Source: Burkholderiales bacterium C2 (GTDB lineage Bacteria; Pseudomonadota; Gammaproteobacteria; Burkholderiales; Burkholderiaceae_C). From it: a DNA stretch of 64,000 bases. The stretch lies in NCBI GenBank assembly GCA_005503085.1, contig SCOI01000011.1, positions 124,001-188,000 on the forward strand, in the 5' to 3' direction. This document shows positions 12,684-53,489 of the stretch, piece by piece. The notes under the pieces were generated by a model that saw only the letters and a program-made list of their open reading frames with translations, made no database searches and was not told where the DNA came from. Every line of letters begins with the position of its first letter. Within the stretch, counting starts at the first letter, position 1. The translations under genes were made by a program, and so were the position numbers.

Positions 12684-13586
12684 ATGAGCAGCAGCACCTT
12701 CGCGCCCACCGGCTTCGACGCGAGCCGCCCGCCGCCCTCGGCCGGCCTGGGCCGCGGCTTCGCGCTGGCCCTGCTGGCCCATGGCCTGCTGATCATCGCG
12801 CTGACCGCCGGCGTGCAATGGCGCTCCAAGACCGAACCGGCCTTCGAGGCCGAGCTGTGGGCCGCGGTGCCGGTGGCAGCGGCGCCGCGCGAGGAGGCCC
12901 CGCCGCCCGAGCCCGAGCCGGTCGTCAAGCCCGCGCCACCCAAACCCGAGCCCCCGCCGCCCGATCTGCAGGCCCAGCGCGATGCCGAGATCGCGATTGC
13001 CAAGGCGCGGGAGAAGAAGCGCGAAGAGCTGGAAGCCAAGCGCCTGGCCGAGCTGGAAGAACAGCGCAAGCAAAAGCTGCGCGAGCTGCAGGAACAGAAG
13101 GACAAGGCGGCCAAGGACGCCAAGACCCTGAAGGAGCAGCAGGCCAAGGAGCAAAAGCTCAAGGACGACAAGGCCCGCCAGGACAGCAAGAAGGCGGAGG
13201 CCCTGGCCGAAAAGCGTGCCGAGGCGCAGCGCCAGGAAAACCTGCGCCGCATCCAGGGCATGGCCGGCGCCAGCGGTGGCCCGCAGGCCACCGGCACGGC
13301 GCTGCAGAGCGCCGGCCCGTCGCCGAGCTATGGCGGCCGCATCAAGGCGCGCATCCGGCCCAACATCATCTACAGCGAATCCGGCGCCGGCAATCCGGTC
13401 GCCGAGGTCGAGGTGCGCGCCGCCGCCGATGGCCACATCATCGGCCGCAAGCTGCTGAAGTCCAGCGGCGATGCCGAGTGGGACAAGGCCGTGCTGCGCG
13501 CGATCGACAAGACCGAGATGCTGCCGCGCGATGTCGACGGCCGCGTGCCCTCGGTGCTGGTGATCACCTTCCAGCCGAAGGACTGA
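12684..13586 (+). CDS. tolA: Periplasm-spanning energy transducer TolA
   Basis: TolA of 300 residues. One membrane helix is near the N-terminus (FALALLAHGLLIIALTAGV), followed by a proline-rich segment (PPPEPEPVVKPAPPKPEPPP), a long K/E/A/Q-rich helical domain (about residues 95-195) and a C-terminal domain that ends GRVPSVLVITFQPKD. The start at 12684 fits the membrane-anchor layout. The usual downstream tolB and pal are absent; the next gene converges from the other strand and overlaps the tolA 3' end by 23 nt. Confidence 0.94.
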   Translation: MSSSTFAPTGFDASRPPPSAGLGRGFALALLAHGLLIIALTAGVQWRSKTEPAFEAELWAAVPVAAAPREEAPPPEPEPVVKPAPPKPEPPPPDLQAQRDAEIAIAKAREKKREELEAKRLAELEEQRKQKLRELQEQKDKAAKDAKTLKEQQAKEQKLKDDKARQDSKKAEALAEKRAEAQRQENLRRIQGMAGASGGPQATGTALQSAGPSPSYGGRIKARIRPNIIYSESGAGNPVAEVEVRAAADGHIIGRKLLKSSGDAEWDKAVLRAIDKTEMLPRDVDGRVPSVLVITFQPKD

Positions 13587-14064
13587 AGCGGCAGATCAAG
13601 GCGTCGGCCGACCAGCGGCCGGCGCCCCAGAAGGCCACCATCAGCAGCAGCGCGCCCCATAGCTGATGACTCAGCAGCGCGGCCGGAGCGATCTCGCTGA
13701 GGCTCAGCACGGCCATGATATTGACCACAGTCAGGCCCAGCGCGGCAAAGCGCCCGCCCAGGCCCAGCGCCAGCAGCACCGGCAGCAGCAACTCACCGCC
13801 GGTGCCCAGCCAGGCCGCCAGCTCGGGCGACAGCAGGGGCACGCGGTACTCGTCCTCGAACAGCAAGAGCGTCGTCGACCAATCGCGGATCTTGGTCAGG
13901 CCGGACAGAAAGAAGACCTGGGCCACATAAAGCCGCGCCGCCAGCAGCGCCAGCGAGCGCAGATGATGGGTCAGTGCGGCCAGCGGTGCGGCCATGGTCA
14001 GCGGCCGCTCCAGGCCAGGGTCGCTGGCCGCGCGCAGCAGCAGGGTCGCGGGATTGCTCATCAT
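13564..14064 (-). CDS. DoxX-family membrane protein of the bufferin locus
   Basis: Small integral membrane protein of 166 residues with about four hydrophobic segments. The DoxX signature region includes RLYVAQVFFLSGLTKIRDW and LGTGGELLLPVLLALGLGGR. Start [10 protein letters not shown] at 14064 overlaps the bufC stop. DoxX-like proteins are frequent partners in MNIO/DUF2282 clusters; a redox or quinone-linked role is likely but not shown here. Its end overlaps the convergent tolA by 23 nt. Confidence 0.88.
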   Translation of the reverse strand: MMSNPATLLLRAASDPGLERPLTMAAPLAALTHHLRSLALLAARLYVAQVFFLSGLTKIRDWSTTLLLFEDEYRVPLLSPELAAWLGTGGELLLPVLLALGLGGRFAALGLTVVNIMAVLSLSEIAPAALLSHQLWGALLLMVAFWGAGRWSADALICRFSPSAGR

Positions 14065-14825
14065 GGGGACTCCGTGAAAGGGATGACCGCCTGCAGCCAG
14101 GCCTCGGACAGGGCGGCTTGCAGCCAGGCGGCGAAGTCGAAGCCGGCATGGGCGGCCAGGGTTTGATCGAGGGCCTGCTGCAGGCTTTGACCCTGCAGCA
14201 GCGCCTGCATGAACAGCGCCTGGTCGGCAGCGAGCAGACGGGCCTCGGCCCGCCAGCCCTGCCGCCACACCAACACGATGAGGTGTTCGTCAGCGCTGCC
14301 GGCCAGGTCCAGCGGCCACCGCGCCGCCGCCGAACCGAGCAGCGACAGCAGCTGCAAGCCGCGCCGCAGCCGCAGGCAAAGCCGGTCCGTTTCCTGCTCG
14401 GCGAGCAGTTGCAGCGAGCCGGCATCGAGTTCAGCGTCCAAGGCCCGCTCGGCCTGATGGGCGGCCCATTCCAGCCGCGCCAGATCGGGCAGCCAGGCCG
14501 GCATGCCGGGCTGATCACGCAGGAACTCGGGCAAGGCCTGACCCCAGCAGCCCAGATCACCGCGCTCCGGTGGGCAGGCACGCCAGAAGGCCCAGGCCAT
14601 CGCCGCGAACTCGGTCTCGCCGAGCGCCTGCTGCAGGCGGCTGAACACCGAGGCCAGGGTCTGGGCGGCCAGCGCCTTGGCATGGCCGCGATAAGCTTGC
14701 AGGCCCCGGGGCAGTGATACGGTGCCCAGGGCTCGGGCCCCGGGCGGCGGCGCTGCGGGGTGAGGTGTTTGCAGCAGCGCTTGCAGCAGCGCCAGCTGGC
14801 GGCGCAACTCGGCCGCGCGGCTCAT
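14061..14825 (-). CDS. bufC: DUF2063/HvfC-like RiPP partner protein (BufC)
   Basis: Protein of 254 residues in the HvfC/BufC (DUF2063) family. The N-terminal part resembles the putative DNA-binding DUF2063 domain ([30 protein letters not shown]), and the C-terminal part is a leucine-rich helical domain. In bufferin systems this partner binds the precursor peptide and helps the MNIO enzyme modify cysteines. It overlaps bufB (4 nt) and doxX (4 nt). The family call rests on motif and context and is weaker than for bufB. Confidence 0.86.
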
Positions 14826-15691
14826 CGCGGCGCCGCCGCGCGCAGGCAGTCCTGCATCAGAGAGGCTTCATCCAGCAGCACGGCGAGCTCGGGCAGGTCG
14901 GTGTCCCACTCGATCAGGCTGGGCACGGCGCCCAGGCGCCGCAGCGCATGGCGGTAGACCTGCCAGACGGGCGCATGAACCCGGCTGCCATGGTCGTCGA
15001 TGACGATATCGTTCAGCCGCGCATAGCCGGCCAGATGGATCTCGCCAACCACACCCGGGTTCAAAGCGTCGATCCATGCGCAGGCCGCGCGCACCGCCGC
15101 CTCCTCATCGGCGCCCCGGTTCAGTGCATTGACCACCAGATTGTTGACATCCAGCAGCAGGCCGCAGCCGCTGCGCCGCACCAGCGCATTGAAGAATTCG
15201 GGCTCGGCGATCCGGTCATCCTCCCAGGCCAGATAGGCGCTGAGGTTCTCGACCAGCAGCGGGCGGCGCAGCCGCTCCTGCACCGTCTGCACATTGGCCA
15301 CCATGATGTCCAGGCTGCTTTCGCTGAAGGCGATCGGCAGCAGGTCATTGGCATGCAGCGCCGGCCCGGCGTCCATGCCGGGCACACGGGCAAAGCTCGC
15401 ATGGTCGGAGACGCGCAGCGGCTGCACTGCCTCGACCAGGCGGGCCAGTTGCTCCAGATGCCAGGGGTCGAGCCCGGCCGCCGAGCCCAGCGAGAGCCCG
15501 ACGCCGTGCAGGCTGATCTCATAGTGCTCGCGCGCGCGCAGCAAGACCTGGCGAGCCGCCCCCCCGGGCGCGAAGAAGTTCTCCGAGTGCAGCTGCAGAA
15601 AGCCCAGATCGGGCCGCTGCTGCATCAGCGCCTGGTAGTGCGGCTGGCGCCAGCCGATACCGACGTTTGAAGAGGCAGGAGCTTCACGCAT
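14822..15691 (-). CDS. bufB: MNIO-family (DUF692) iron enzyme, BufB
   Basis: Multinuclear non-heme iron-dependent oxidative enzyme of 289 residues with a TIM-barrel fold. Conserved metal and active-site candidates are in [43 protein letters not shown] and DDHGSRV. Characterised bufferin MNIOs convert precursor cysteines into thiooxazole-type heterocycles. The neighbouring DUF2282 gene 19 nt upstream supplies the likely substrate, and DUF2063 and DoxX genes follow with 4-nt overlaps. Confidence 0.94.
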
Positions 15692-15710
15692 GGGGGTCGG
15701 GTCTTGTCGC

Positions 15711-15989
15711 TTACTTCTTCGCCTTGGCCTTGGCTTCCTCGGCCGTCATGCCCTTCATGGCCTTGCATTCGCCCTTGGCCACATACTTCCATTCGTCGGG
15801 GGCGTTGTCGGCCTTGGACTGGCCGGCGCAGGAGTGGGTGCCGCTGAGATTGGCGCAGTCGTTCTGGCCGGCCTTGGCGACGCCATAGCATTTTTCCTTG
15901 GCGGCCTTGTCCTGGGCCATGGCTTGGCCGACCGCGCCCATGGACAGGGCGGCGGCCAGCGCGGACGAAACGAGTTGGGATGTCTTCAT
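15711..15989 (-). CDS. bufA: DUF2282 bufferin precursor peptide, BufA
   Basis: Small 92-residue precursor with a Sec signal peptide (about residues 1-25, cleavage after QAMA). The mature part holds four cysteines, C34 ([10 protein letters not shown]), C45 (NDCAN), C54 (HSCAG) and C75 (GECKAM), and ends in a lysine/alanine-rich tail. This matches DUF2282 bufferins, which are post-translationally modified copper-binding peptides. An AAGGA ribosome-binding site precedes the ATG. It is the first gene of the minus-strand buf operon. Confidence 0.93.
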
Positions 15990-16110
15990 CAGAGTTCCTT
16001 GAGGTGTAGGGTTGAGATCGAGGCCGACGCATCATGCGTTGGACACCTGTGTGTCGCAAGTGCCGGCCAAGTCCTTACACTGCGCCCATCGAAAATTCCG
16101 AGCCCTCTTG
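15990..16110. promoter_or_regulatory. Divergent control region between bufA and the ECF sigma gene
   Basis: On the minus strand GTAAGG (16073-16078) and CGAC (16053-16056) are separated by 16 nt. This resembles the GTAACC-16-CGAA type of ECF promoter known for Caulobacter SigF, so it is the best candidate bufA promoter. ACTTG occurs twice as a direct repeat inside it. Between it and bufA lie two inverted repeats: ACGCAT-C-ATGCGT (16027-16039) and ACAC-CT-GTGT (16043-16052). The promoter call is a motif match only. Confidence 0.45.
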
Positions 16111-16674
16111 ATGAGCGACTACGCCAAGGCCATCGAAGCGCTGCGTCCACAGCTGCTGAAATACGCGCGGCTGCAGCTGCGCAACGCCGCCTGGGCCGAG
16201 GACGCGGTGTCCGAGACCGTGCTCGCGGCGCTGGAGAAGCCGCAGGCTTTCGGCGGCCAATCGCAGCTCAAGACCTGGCTGGTGGGCATCCTCAAGCACA
16301 AGCTGATCGACCAGATCCGCCGCAACTGCCGCGAGATGTCGACCACGGCCGAGGACGGCGTCGATCTCGACGACGAGCTCTTCCACCCCGACGGCCACTG
16401 GCGCGAAGCCCCGCAGGACTGGGGCGACCCCGAGCAGGCGCTGCGCCAGCTCGAATTCATGAAGGTGCTGGAGGCCTGCGTCGAGCTGCTGCCCGGCCAG
16501 CAGGGCCGCCTGTTCATGATGAGGGAGTGGCTGGAGCTGGACAGCGACGAGATCTGTAAGGCTTTGGCCATCACGCCGACCAATCTCTGGGTCATGCTGC
16601 ACCGCGCCCGGCTGCGGCTGCGTGATTGCCTTCAACTCAACTGGTTCGCGGGCCCGTCGGCGCCCGCCCGATGA
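16111..16674 (+). CDS. ECF-type RNA polymerase sigma factor beside the bufferin operon
   Basis: Sigma-70 family factor of 187 residues with only regions 2 and 4. Region 2 covers about residues 10-75 (AEDAVSETVLAALEK, TWLVGILKHKLIDQIRR). Region 4 lies around 125-175 (LPGQQGRLFMMREWLELDSDE, given here as LPGQQGRLFMMREW, then IT.TNLWVMLHRAR). It is divergent from bufA and its stop overlaps the anti-sigma ATG. It probably activates bufABC in response to a metal or oxidative signal. The start at 16111 is the one that fits ECF length. Confidence 0.9.
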   Translation: MSDYAKAIEALRPQLLKYARLQLRNAAWAEDAVSETVLAALEKPQAFGGQSQLKTWLVGILKHKLIDQIRRNCREMSTTAEDGVDLDDELFHPDGHWREAPQDWGDPEQALRQLEFMKVLEACVELLPGQQGRLFMMREWLELDSDEICKALAITPTNLWVMLHRARLRLRDCLQLNWFAGPSAPAR

Positions 16675-16871
16675 TCATGCTGCTGCGCCGCTCCTGCAAA
16701 CAGGTCACCCATCTCGTGCTGCAGGCCGAGGACCGCGCGCTGCCGCTGCGCGAACGCCTGGCCGTGCGCCTGCATATGTTGGTCTGCAAGGCCTGCCCGC
16801 GATTTGCCGACCAGGTAGCGCTGATGCGCAGCGCCAGCAAGCGCTGGCGGGCCTATTCGGAGTCGGAGTGA
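16671..16871 (+). CDS. Small zf-HC2 anti-sigma factor
   Basis: Protein of 66 residues with the zinc-binding H-x3-C-x2-C motif (H35, C39, C42 in HMLVCKACP). This is the signature of ZAS/zf-HC2 anti-sigma factors. No membrane helix is present, so it should act in the cytoplasm. The start overlaps the sigma stop as ATGA, which indicates coupled translation with its likely partner sigma factor. Confidence 0.88.
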   Translation: MIMLLRRSCKQVTHLVLQAEDRALPLRERLAVRLHMLVCKACPRFADQVALMRSASKRWRAYSESE

Positions 16872-52235: not shown

Positions 52236-53489
52236 TCACCGATCAATCTCGCCGAACACGATGTCCATCGTGCCGATGATGGCCACGGCATCGGCCAGCA
52301 TATGGCCGCGCGCCATCTCGTCCAGCGCCGCCAGATGCGAGAAGCCCGGTGCACGGATCTTCAGGCGGTAAGGCTTGTTGGCGCCATCGCTGACGATGTA
52401 GATGCCGAACTCGCCCTTCGGGTGCTCGACCGCCGCATAGGCCTCGCCCTCGGGCACCTTGAAGCCCTCCGTAAAGAGCTTGAAGTGGTGGATCAGCTCC
52501 TCCATATTCGACTTCATGCCGACACGGGCCGGCGGCGCCACCTTGTGGTTGTCGGTGATGACCGGGCCGGGGTTCTTGCGCAGCCAGTCCACGCATTGCT
52601 GGATGATGCGGTTGGACTGGCGCATCTCCTCGACACGCACCACATAGCGGTCGTAGGTGTCGCCGTTGGTGCCGACCGGCACATCGAAATCGATGTGGGC
52701 ATAGGCATCGTAGGGCTGGGTCTTGCGCAGGTCCCAGGGGATGCCGCAGCCGCGCAGCATCGGGCCGGTCAGGCCCAGGTTCAGCGCGCGCTCGGGCGTC
52801 AGTACACCGATGCCGACGGTGCGCTGCTTCCAGATGCGGTTGTCGGTCAGCAGGGTTTCGTAGTCGTCGACGTTCTTCGGGAAACGCTTACAGAAGTCCT
52901 CGATGAAGTCCAGCAAGGAGCCCGAGCGATTCTCATTGAGCATCGCAATCGTCTTGGCGTTCTTGATCTTGCTGACCTGGTACTGCGGCATCACGTCCGG
53001 CAGATCGCGGTAAACGCCGCCCGGACGGAAGTAGGCCGCATGCATGCGCGCGCCCGACACCGCCTCGTACATATCGAACAGGTCTTCGCGCTCGCGGAAG
53101 GCGTAGATCAGCACATTCATCGCGCCGCAGTCCAGCCCGTGGGCGCCCAGCCACATCAGGTGGTTCAGCAGCCGGGTGATCTCGGCAAACATCACGCGGA
53201 TGTACTGCGCACGGATCGGCACCTCGATGCCCAGCATCTTCTCGATCGCCAGGCAGTAGGCCTGCTCATTGGCCATCATCGACACATAGTCGAGACGGTC
53301 CATATAGGGCAGCGACTGGATGTAGGTCTTGCTCTCGGCCAGCTTCTCGGTGGCGCGGTGCAGCAGGCCGATATGCGGATCGGCGCGCTGGATCACTTCG
53401 CCGTCGAGCTCCAGCACCAGGCGCAGCACGCCGTGGGCAGCCGGATGCTGAGGACCGAAATTGAGGGTGTAGTTCTTGATCTCGGCCAT
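52236..53489 (-). CDS. nuoD: NADH-quinone oxidoreductase subunit D
   Basis: 49-kDa subunit of complex I, 417 residues, related to NiFe hydrogenase large subunits and lining the quinone pocket. Conserved sequences are [21 protein letters not shown] (first 12 residues quoted suffices: [12 protein letters not shown]), HRGTEKL-like [11 protein letters not shown], and [13 protein letters not shown]. It is separate from nuoC, which lies 3 nt upstream. Confidence 0.97.

What the first reader, a model, noticed from the sequence alone, without database searches (positions are those of the whole stretch)
13564..16871. Complete bufferin-type RiPP locus with its own sigma and anti-sigma factor
bufA (DUF2282), bufB (MNIO/DUF692), bufC (DUF2063) and doxX form an overlapping minus-strand operon. 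An ECF sigma factor and a zf-HC2 protein lie divergent. MNIO enzymes modify cysteines of secreted precursors, and bufferins bind copper in the periplasm, so this is probably a metal-stress RiPP pathway. The set is compact and complete, and the pairing with a soluble anti-sigma factor gives a full sense-and-respond unit.
Basis: partly seen in the sequence, partly recalled or inferred. Interest (0 to 1): 0.75.

Follow-up and report, generated by a model that had tools for sequence, protein, structure and literature searches.

The report
Copper-peptide operon under stress sigma factor
This bacterium carries a known kind of operon that makes a small, probably copper-binding, cysteine-modified periplasmic protein, and DNA signals suggest that the neighbouring stress sigma factor switches it on together with a second such operon and a methionine-repair enzyme elsewhere in the genome.

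Summary
At 13564-16871 lie bufA (DUF2282), bufB (MNIO), bufC (DUF2063) and doxX, divergent from an ECF sigma gene and a 66-residue zf-HC2 (ZAS-type) anti-sigma. Bufferin-1 operons are known, and Cupriavidus gigPABT/rpoQ-rsqA has the same divergent layout, so the gene set is a new member.

Added here:
- A conserved promoter, GTAAG-N16..18-YGAC, points at bufA (16053-16079, minus) and never at the sigma gene (0 of 72 independent relatives). It resembles the published meningococcal sigma-E promoter.
- GTAAGG-N15..16-CGAC occurs six times in the genome. Four sites precede genes: bufA, an unlinked bufferin-2 operon, an msrP homologue and a Sel1-like gene.
- In relatives the motif recurs before msrP, msrA/B, egtD/B and thioredoxin-like genes: oxidant/thiol defence plus bufferins, not metal response alone.
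- In compact divergons the bufA -35 overlaps the sigma gene's probable housekeeping -10 (TACACT) on the other strand (53 of 54 loci).

Copper binding, cysteine modification and the inducing signal could not be tested.

The parts
15711..15989 (-). bufA: 92-aa DUF2282 bufferin-1 precursor with four Cys and a signal-peptide-like N-terminus
   Evidence: Cys invariant in 77 of 77; signal peptide by eye
14822..15691 (-). bufB: MNIO (DUF692) maturase
   Evidence: Pfam 299.6 bits; NCBIfam MNIO_BufB 299.2, cut-off 310; aligns to 3bww
14061..14825 (-). bufC: DUF2063 partner protein
13564..14064 (-). doxX: DoxX-family membrane protein; ATG at 14064 by my reading
16053..16079 (-). Predicted ECF promoter of bufA: TGTAAGGA, spacer, CGAC; begins 90 nt upstream of the bufA start
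16076..16081 (+). TACACT, probable housekeeping -10 of the sigma gene; overlaps the bufA -35. A poor -35 candidate, GTCGCA, lies at 16053-16058 with a 17-nt spacer
   Evidence: not found by the consensus scan
16111..16674 (+). ECF sigma factor, PRK12520 type
16671..16871 (+). 66-aa ZAS (zf-HC2) anti-sigma: C9, H35, C39, C42
   Evidence: same spacing as MseR

Best explanation
The locus is a bufferin-1 operon. BufA is a small Sec-exported precursor; BufB with BufC oxidises its central cysteines in the cytoplasm, by analogy to 5-thiooxazoles, and the mature protein binds Cu(I) in the periplasm; DoxX is an accessory membrane protein (all inferred from homology). At rest the ECF sigma, made from a housekeeping promoter, is held by the soluble ZAS anti-sigma (inferred). 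An event that oxidises or metallates the anti-sigma's cysteines releases it (inferred; oxidant/thiol stress, with copper as one possible cause). The free sigma drives bufABC-doxX from the promoter at 16053-16079 (motif shown; activity inferred). In trans it drives a bufferin-2 operon, an msrP homologue and a Sel1-like gene (motifs shown; control inferred). The housekeeping -10 of the sigma gene overlaps the bufA -35 on the opposite strand (conservation shown), so use of the bufA promoter may block fresh sigma synthesis and limit the response (inferred).
For: Family matches. Upstream of bufA, one exact dyad in 9 of 25 divergent loci against at most 3 in 20 shuffles. In an independent set the motif is present in 46 of 47 loci with divergent bufA and in 3 of 25 without. 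It never points at sigma, 0 of 72. Presence before bufA goes with the sigma being in the genome: 27 of 40 versus 6 of 37 (lineages not independent). -35 and spacer match the published meningococcal promoter. Trans targets: 14 of 21 bufferin-2 precursors carry the strict motif, mononucleotide shuffles 43 of 42,000; own genome 6 hits, 4 before bufA, bufA2, msrP and a Sel1-like gene. Recurrent redox families at 60 chosen hit regions. Overlap: AGTGTAAG in 53 of 54 compact divergent loci, 0 of 16 bufferin-2 and 2 of 36 other promoters; TACACT in 11 of 25 sigma loci without divergent bufA, shuffle mean 0.16.
Against: No expression, binding or mass data. BufB is 11 bits under NCBI's BufB cut-off. In 7 of 27 copies scored as divergent in the first set no GTAAG-N16..18-YGAC site was found within 250 bp upstream of bufA. 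Of the 21 divergent first-set copies with the motif, only 13 have AGT before it; the other 8 have gaps of 190 bp or more between bufA and sigma (read), so the overlap belongs to compact loci only. A sigma-70 consensus scan finds no promoter before the sigma gene. The window holds four matches of the relaxed motif, three inside coding DNA, so a match alone is weak; 24 of the 60 hit regions showed no recurrent family. In Cupriavidus deletion of rpoQ raised gig expression, and Neisseria sigma-E gave no response to the oxidants tested.
Confidence: 0.75

Rival explanations
1. Copper-sensing model: the sigma/anti-sigma pair is a dedicated metal sensor, copper (or gold) binding to the anti-sigma's thiols releases the sigma, and methionine-repair targets are secondary.
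For: The Cupriavidus gig operon is induced by copper and gold. 5-thiooxazole peptides bind copper. Cys/Zn sites can be displaced by Cu(I) (recalled).
Against: The predicted regulon in relatives is rich in methionine-sulfoxide and thiol repair. ZAS relative HrsE controls an oxidant response. The anti-sigma is cytoplasmic, whereas the Cupriavidus paper infers a periplasmic copper signal for gig.
Confidence: 0.3
2. Two separate promoters without functional coupling: the GCAG flank is conserved only because two promoters are packed into about 100 bp, and occupancy of one does not affect the other.
For: TACACT is found upstream of sigma also without bufA (11 of 25), so it serves sigma in any case; the overlap is seen only in compact loci.
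Against: The exact overlap is kept in 53 of 54 compact loci, although separate placement is possible, as loci with wider gaps show.
Confidence: 0.45
3. The bufA promoter is recognised by another ECF sigma of the genome, and the divergent sigma has other targets.
For: Motif also found before bufA in 3 of 19 copies from genomes without a PRK12520 match and in 3 of 18 from genomes with only a below-cut-off match. Genomic neighbourhood is not proof; rpoQ deletion did not lower gig in Cupriavidus.
Against: 27 of 40 versus 6 of 37 association with the sigma; match with the published promoter of a ZAS-controlled sigma.
Confidence: 0.1

Closest known systems
gigPABT / rpoQ-rsqA of Cupriavidus metallidurans (PMC10304878, passages)
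   Same: Same four-gene operon (gigPABT; equated with bufferin clusters in PMC12452194) with a divergent ECF sigma gene and putative anti-sigma gene; sigma region reported as RpoD-dependent
   Different: The paper calls RsqA predicted membrane-bound; here the anti-sigma is a 66-aa soluble ZAS protein
Sigma-F/NrsF regulon of Caulobacter (PMC3511200, passages)
   Same: One ECF sigma controls a DUF2282/DUF692/DUF2063/DoxX operon, an unlinked second DUF2282/DUF692/DUF2063 operon and YedY (MsrP by recall); sigF not strongly autoregulated
   Different: Anti-sigma NrsF has six putative membrane segments; three NrsF proteins were confirmed at other relatives' bufA loci, but the window uses ZAS
Sigma-E/MseR of Neisseria meningitidis (PMC2893595, passages)
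   Same: Soluble ZAS anti-sigma with the same C/H/C/C spacing; similar -35 and spacer; regulon has an operon with a DoxX-like gene, and MsrA/MsrB
   Different: Sigma and target genes form one autoregulated operon; the neisserial peptide (gonophorin, PMC13097082) is of the EGKCG type, not DUF2282
RpoE2/HrsE of Haemophilus influenzae (PMC7907618, passages)
   Same: 67-aa cytoplasmic anti-sigma with ZAS motif; controls MsrAB and, elsewhere in the genome, a DoxX/COG3220/DUF2063 cluster
   Different: The cluster is not next to the sigma gene and its precursor is not DUF2282

Membership tests
Bufferin-1 (DUF2282) RiPP locus | DUF2282 precursor with four conserved Cys | tested here: met
   89.0 bits, cut-off 22.4; Cys invariant in 77 of 77 ORFs
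Bufferin-1 (DUF2282) RiPP locus | Gene order bufA, bufB (MNIO), bufC (DUF2063), often with doxX | tested here: met
   order as in PMC12452194
Bufferin-1 (DUF2282) RiPP locus | Maturase over NCBI's MNIO_BufB name cut-off | tested here: not met
   299.2 versus 310 bits, yet the best-scoring model; Pfam MNIO family met, 299.6 versus 25. A near miss of a naming threshold; I file the locus by the first two features
Bufferin-1 (DUF2282) RiPP locus | Sec signal peptide on the precursor | tested here: inconclusive
   N-terminus looks like one by eye; no signal-peptide program was available
Bufferin-1 (DUF2282) RiPP locus | Cysteines turned into 5-thiooxazoles; copper binding | not testable with these tools
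   needs mass spectrometry and metal-binding assays
ZAS anti-sigma paired with an ECF sigma | H-x3-C-x2-C plus an upstream Cys at MseR spacing, encoded directly after the sigma | tested here: met
   C9-H35-C39-C42 versus MseR C4-H30-C34-C37; 31 of 31 ORFs; ZAS gene behind the sigma in 72 of 72 independent loci
ZAS anti-sigma paired with an ECF sigma | Binds zinc and inhibits its sigma | not testable with these tools
   biochemistry needed
Classical autoregulated ECF operon | The sigma's own promoter motif precedes the sigma gene | tested here: not met
   0 of 72 independent loci, within 300 bp upstream

The most novel reading that the evidence does not exclude
One 10-bp element (GCAGTGTAAG / CTTACACTGC) is at once the -35 of the ECF-dependent bufA promoter and the -10 of the housekeeping promoter of the ECF gene on the other strand. 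Activation of the target would then physically shut off production of its own sigma factor, giving a self-limiting pulse that does not depend on the anti-sigma. The same sigma ties both bufferin families to methionine-sulfoxide and thiol repair across Roseateles-like Burkholderiales.
Probability: 0.35. Interest if true: 0.65.

Novelty: new variant of a known kind. Interest (0 to 1): 0.45.

Why it matters
Bufferins are described as copper-chelating RiPPs, but what switches them on in most bacteria is open. The part of the MNIO census that I read names only NrsF as anti-sigma in bufferin-1 clusters (PMC12452194, section 14). The data here predict that in many Burkholderiales a soluble cysteine/zinc anti-sigma does that job. 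They also predict that bufferin-1, bufferin-2 and methionine-sulfoxide reductases answer to one sigma, which would place bufferins in oxidant as well as copper defence. The promoters are given to the base, so the claim can be tested with a few reporter fusions in laboratory strains.

Tried and rejected
Inverted repeat in the bufA leader (window about 16020-16045): it looked like a conserved hairpin, but it folds no better than shuffles (window z -0.46; 48 leaders median z -0.5, 36 control leaders -0.04). Rejected.

One-mismatch motif search of the own genome: 140 hits against 353 for the reversed control, i.e. noise. Only exact forms were used.

Motif matches in coding DNA: in the sigma gene (window 16555-16580), where Cys-Lys codons spell TGTAAG, and two in the ORF at 52236-53489 (nuoD by recall). 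Taken as coincidence. The C11 hit precedes an ORF without a visible link to the rest and was left out of the regulon.

A sigma-70 consensus promoter in the intergenic region: none found. Acinetobacter SigAb was considered as a parallel (PMC12153292, passages): copper-responsive, but with a different anti-sigma, and the words bufferin, DUF692 and DUF2282 do not occur in that paper's main text.

The script's first count of divergent sigma/ZAS loci (23 of 77 BufA copies) was too low: its rules missed L039, L045, L068, L101 and L102, and reading one search gives 28 of 73 loci. The script likewise scores L068 as not divergent. Seven further divergent loci carry a lower-scoring sigma. Three of their anti-sigmas were scanned and all three are NrsF; the other four were not scanned.
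Full report
1. What is there. The minus strand carries bufA (15711-15989), bufB (14822-15691), bufC (14061-14825) and doxX (13564-14064). The plus strand carries an ECF sigma (16111-16674) and a 66-aa anti-sigma (16671-16871). All six match their Pfam families over cut-off. In NCBIfam the sigma passes PRK12520 (294.3, cut-off 255) and the anti-sigma passes antisigmaE (64.0, cut-off 50). BufB is just under the BufB cut-off (299.2 versus 310), DoxX and BufC are below the Hvf cut-offs, and BufA has no hit. BufB aligns to 3bww, a DUF692 structure. The four BufA cysteines are invariant in 77 of 77 ORFs and the anti-sigma C/H/C/C in 31 of 31. The anti-sigma spacing (C9, H35, C39, C42) equals that of meningococcal MseR (C4, H30, C34, C37; PMC2893595, passages).

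2. How common. A DUF2282 gene was found in 64 of 120 sampled relatives. I fetched 72 stretches around those hits; with the window that is 73 loci and 77 BufA ORFs. By the table, 28 of 73 loci have the PRK12520-type sigma plus ZAS anti-sigma divergent to bufA. Seven more have another, lower-scoring sigma; three of their anti-sigmas were scanned and are NrsF. In six of seven loci with a gap above 600 bp (of 25 measured) a thioredoxin-like gene sits between bufA and sigma (one of the six scanned: AhpC-TSA over cut-off, TlpA below cut-off).

3. A promoter for bufA. In 25 divergent loci the dyad TAAG-N17-CGAC occurs upstream of bufA in 9; in each of 20 mononucleotide shuffles the best dyad reached 3. 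In the window it reads TGTAAGGACTTGGCCGGCACTTGCGAC, minus strand, 16053-16079, beginning 90 nt upstream of the bufA start. The consensus deduced for the meningococcal sigma-E promoter, whose sigma is also held by a ZAS anti-sigma, is GTMAGBWTT, 12-13 nt, CGTCTAAH (PMC2893595). The window has GTAAGGACT, 13 nt, CGACACA: eight of nine -35 positions and the spacing agree (my comparison).

4. Independent set. A scan of named genomes with the sigma protein found 255 relatives, of which the best 80 were kept. The nearest is Paucibacter sp. PLA-PC-4 (98%), so the window probably comes from a Paucibacter/Roseateles-like bacterium. Of the 72, all have the ZAS gene and 47 a divergent bufA. The motif GTAAG-N16..18-YGAC, sought within 300 bp, reads away from sigma in 46 of the 47 and in 3 of the 25 others, and towards sigma in 0 of 72. 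So bufA, not the sigma gene, looks like the target. Across the 77 BufA copies of the first set the motif is present in 27 of 40 where the genome has the sigma over its NCBI cut-off, and in 6 of 37 otherwise (Fisher 7.6e-6, lineages not independent). In 7 of 27 copies scored as divergent there it was not found within 250 bp.

5. Targets in trans. TGTAAG-N16..18-CGAC occurs five times in the 5.8-Mb own genome (reversed control 29): bufA; a site ending 64 nt before a second precursor gene on another contig; the sigma coding region; the ORF at 52236-53489; and one before an unrelated ORF. The second precursor passes NCBI's BufA2 model (103 bits, cut-off 60), its maturase passes MNIO_BufB (385.3, cut-off 310) and the partner passes DUF2063: a bufferin-2 operon. 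GTAAGG-N15..16-CGAC has six hits (reversed control 27): bufA, bufA2, a site beginning 53 nt upstream of an msrP homologue, a site beginning about 71 nt upstream of the likely start of a Sel1-like gene, and two coding hits. The msrP homologue is named from PF00174 (113 bits) and likeness by eye to the MsrP scanned; Sel1 is weak (E 0.0048, below cut-off). In relatives 22 bufferin-2-type maturase loci (the best-scoring ones) were examined. The precursor was found in 21, and the strict motif TGTAAG-N16..18-YGAC lies within 250 bp upstream in 14 of 21 (mononucleotide shuffles 43 of 42,000).

6. Wider regulon. I searched 25 relatives for TGTAAG-N16..17-CGAC (the tool's list was cut short) and fetched 60 hit regions, 59 from relatives and one from the own genome. 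This is only part of the list, chosen mostly by the -35 sequence and before I saw the genes; most sigma, bufA and bufA2 hits were left out. 36 of 60 fall into recurrent families: MsrP 9, DUF1223 6, Pyr_redox 3, VTT/Pyr_redox 3, ArsS 3, and two each of EgtD, MsrB, MNIO, thioredoxin-like, Sel1-like and a phosphorylase-like family. Single hits include MsrA and EgtB. One member was named by HMM for MsrP, MsrB, EgtD, EgtB, MsrA, ArsS, DUF1223, Pyr_redox and VTT (EgtD, EgtB and MsrA from cut-short sequences); the rest are by eye. The other 24 show no recurrent family and will include chance hits. Genome-wide the motif is rarer than its reversed control in nearly all genomes, so hit numbers alone prove nothing; the recurrence of gene families is the evidence. 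The set resembles the Caulobacter sigma-F regulon (two DUF2282 operons plus YedY; PMC3511200, passages) and those of Neisseria and Haemophilus (MsrAB plus a DoxX-containing operon).

7. Overlapping promoters. In the 54 divergent loci of the named set with the motif, the bases before TGTAAG are also conserved (GCAG, 89-98% per base), and GTAAG lies 12-71 nt from the sigma start. AGTGTAAG occurs in 53 of 54 (45 of 46 independent), but in 0 of 16 bufferin-2 and 2 of 36 other predicted promoters, and in 0 of 12 bufA copies not next to sigma (read). In the first set 13 of 21 divergent copies with the motif have it; the eight without have gaps of 190 bp or more, and the ten measured with it have gaps of 182 bp or less (read). 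So the overlap belongs to compact divergons. On the sigma strand the element is CTTACACT. In sigma loci without divergent bufA, TACACT still lies within 100 nt upstream in 11 of 25 (shuffle mean 0.16, maximum 2 in 2000), 32-50 nt from the start in 9 of the 11. I read TACACT (16076-16081) as the sigma gene's housekeeping -10, in line with the report that rpoQ-rsqA depends on RpoD (PMC10304878, passages). Against: no good -35, and a consensus scan finds nothing.

8. Mechanism and signal. 5-thiooxazole formation and Cu binding are reported for relatives (PMC13097082, passages and section 11; the original bufferin paper was not seen). The ZAS cysteines make a cytoplasmic thiol/zinc switch likely. 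What trips it is open: gig responds to Cu and Au, rpoE2 to HOCl and H2O2, and Neisseria sigma-E to none of the stimuli tested. In Cupriavidus deletion of rpoQ raised gig expression in metal-treated cells, a warning against assuming control from neighbourhood.

9. Novelty. The gene set is a new member of a known kind; ZAS control and the overlapping promoter make a variant. I did not find the bufferin-1/ZAS pairing, its regulon or the overlap described (0 papers; listings), nor in the passages read. The library lacks most subscription journals, so this is weak evidence of absence.

10. Mended on checking: the share of divergent copies without a motif (7 of 27), distances of the msrP and Sel1 sites, the limits of the 60-region sample, the 13 of 21 first-set figure for the overlap, and the relaxed-motif count in the window (four matches, three of them coding).

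Noticed in passing
L105:6342-8253 (own genome, another contig): Second bufferin operon (BufA2 with six Cys, MNIO, DUF2063) without a sigma gene next to it, with the same predicted promoter ending 64 nt upstream.
   Followed up: yes
L038, L043, L050, L063, L073, L084, between bufA and the sigma gene: A thioredoxin-like (TlpA/ResA-type) gene sits between bufA and sigma; in most of these loci a further TGTAAG site beside the sigma start points at it.
   Followed up: partly
L044, between bufA and the sigma gene: A small signal-peptide-like protein with repeated NPCAAKNPC motifs next to a bufferin operon; possibly another cysteine-rich metal binder.
   Followed up: no
L193, L199, L216: ArsS-type (arsenosugar radical SAM) genes directly behind the predicted sigma promoter; a possible arsenic link of this regulon.
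   Followed up: partly
L173, L195, L215: Ergothioneine genes (egtD twice, egtB once) behind the predicted sigma promoter.
   Followed up: partly
L289 and L301: Sigma/ZAS pairs without bufA, in strains that also give a bufA-linked pair (L262, L272), with GTAAACT in place of TACACT upstream.
   Followed up: no
window 16555-16580: The promoter motif occurs inside the sigma coding region here and in many relatives, because Cys-Lys codons spell TGTAAG; a trap for motif searches.
   Followed up: partly
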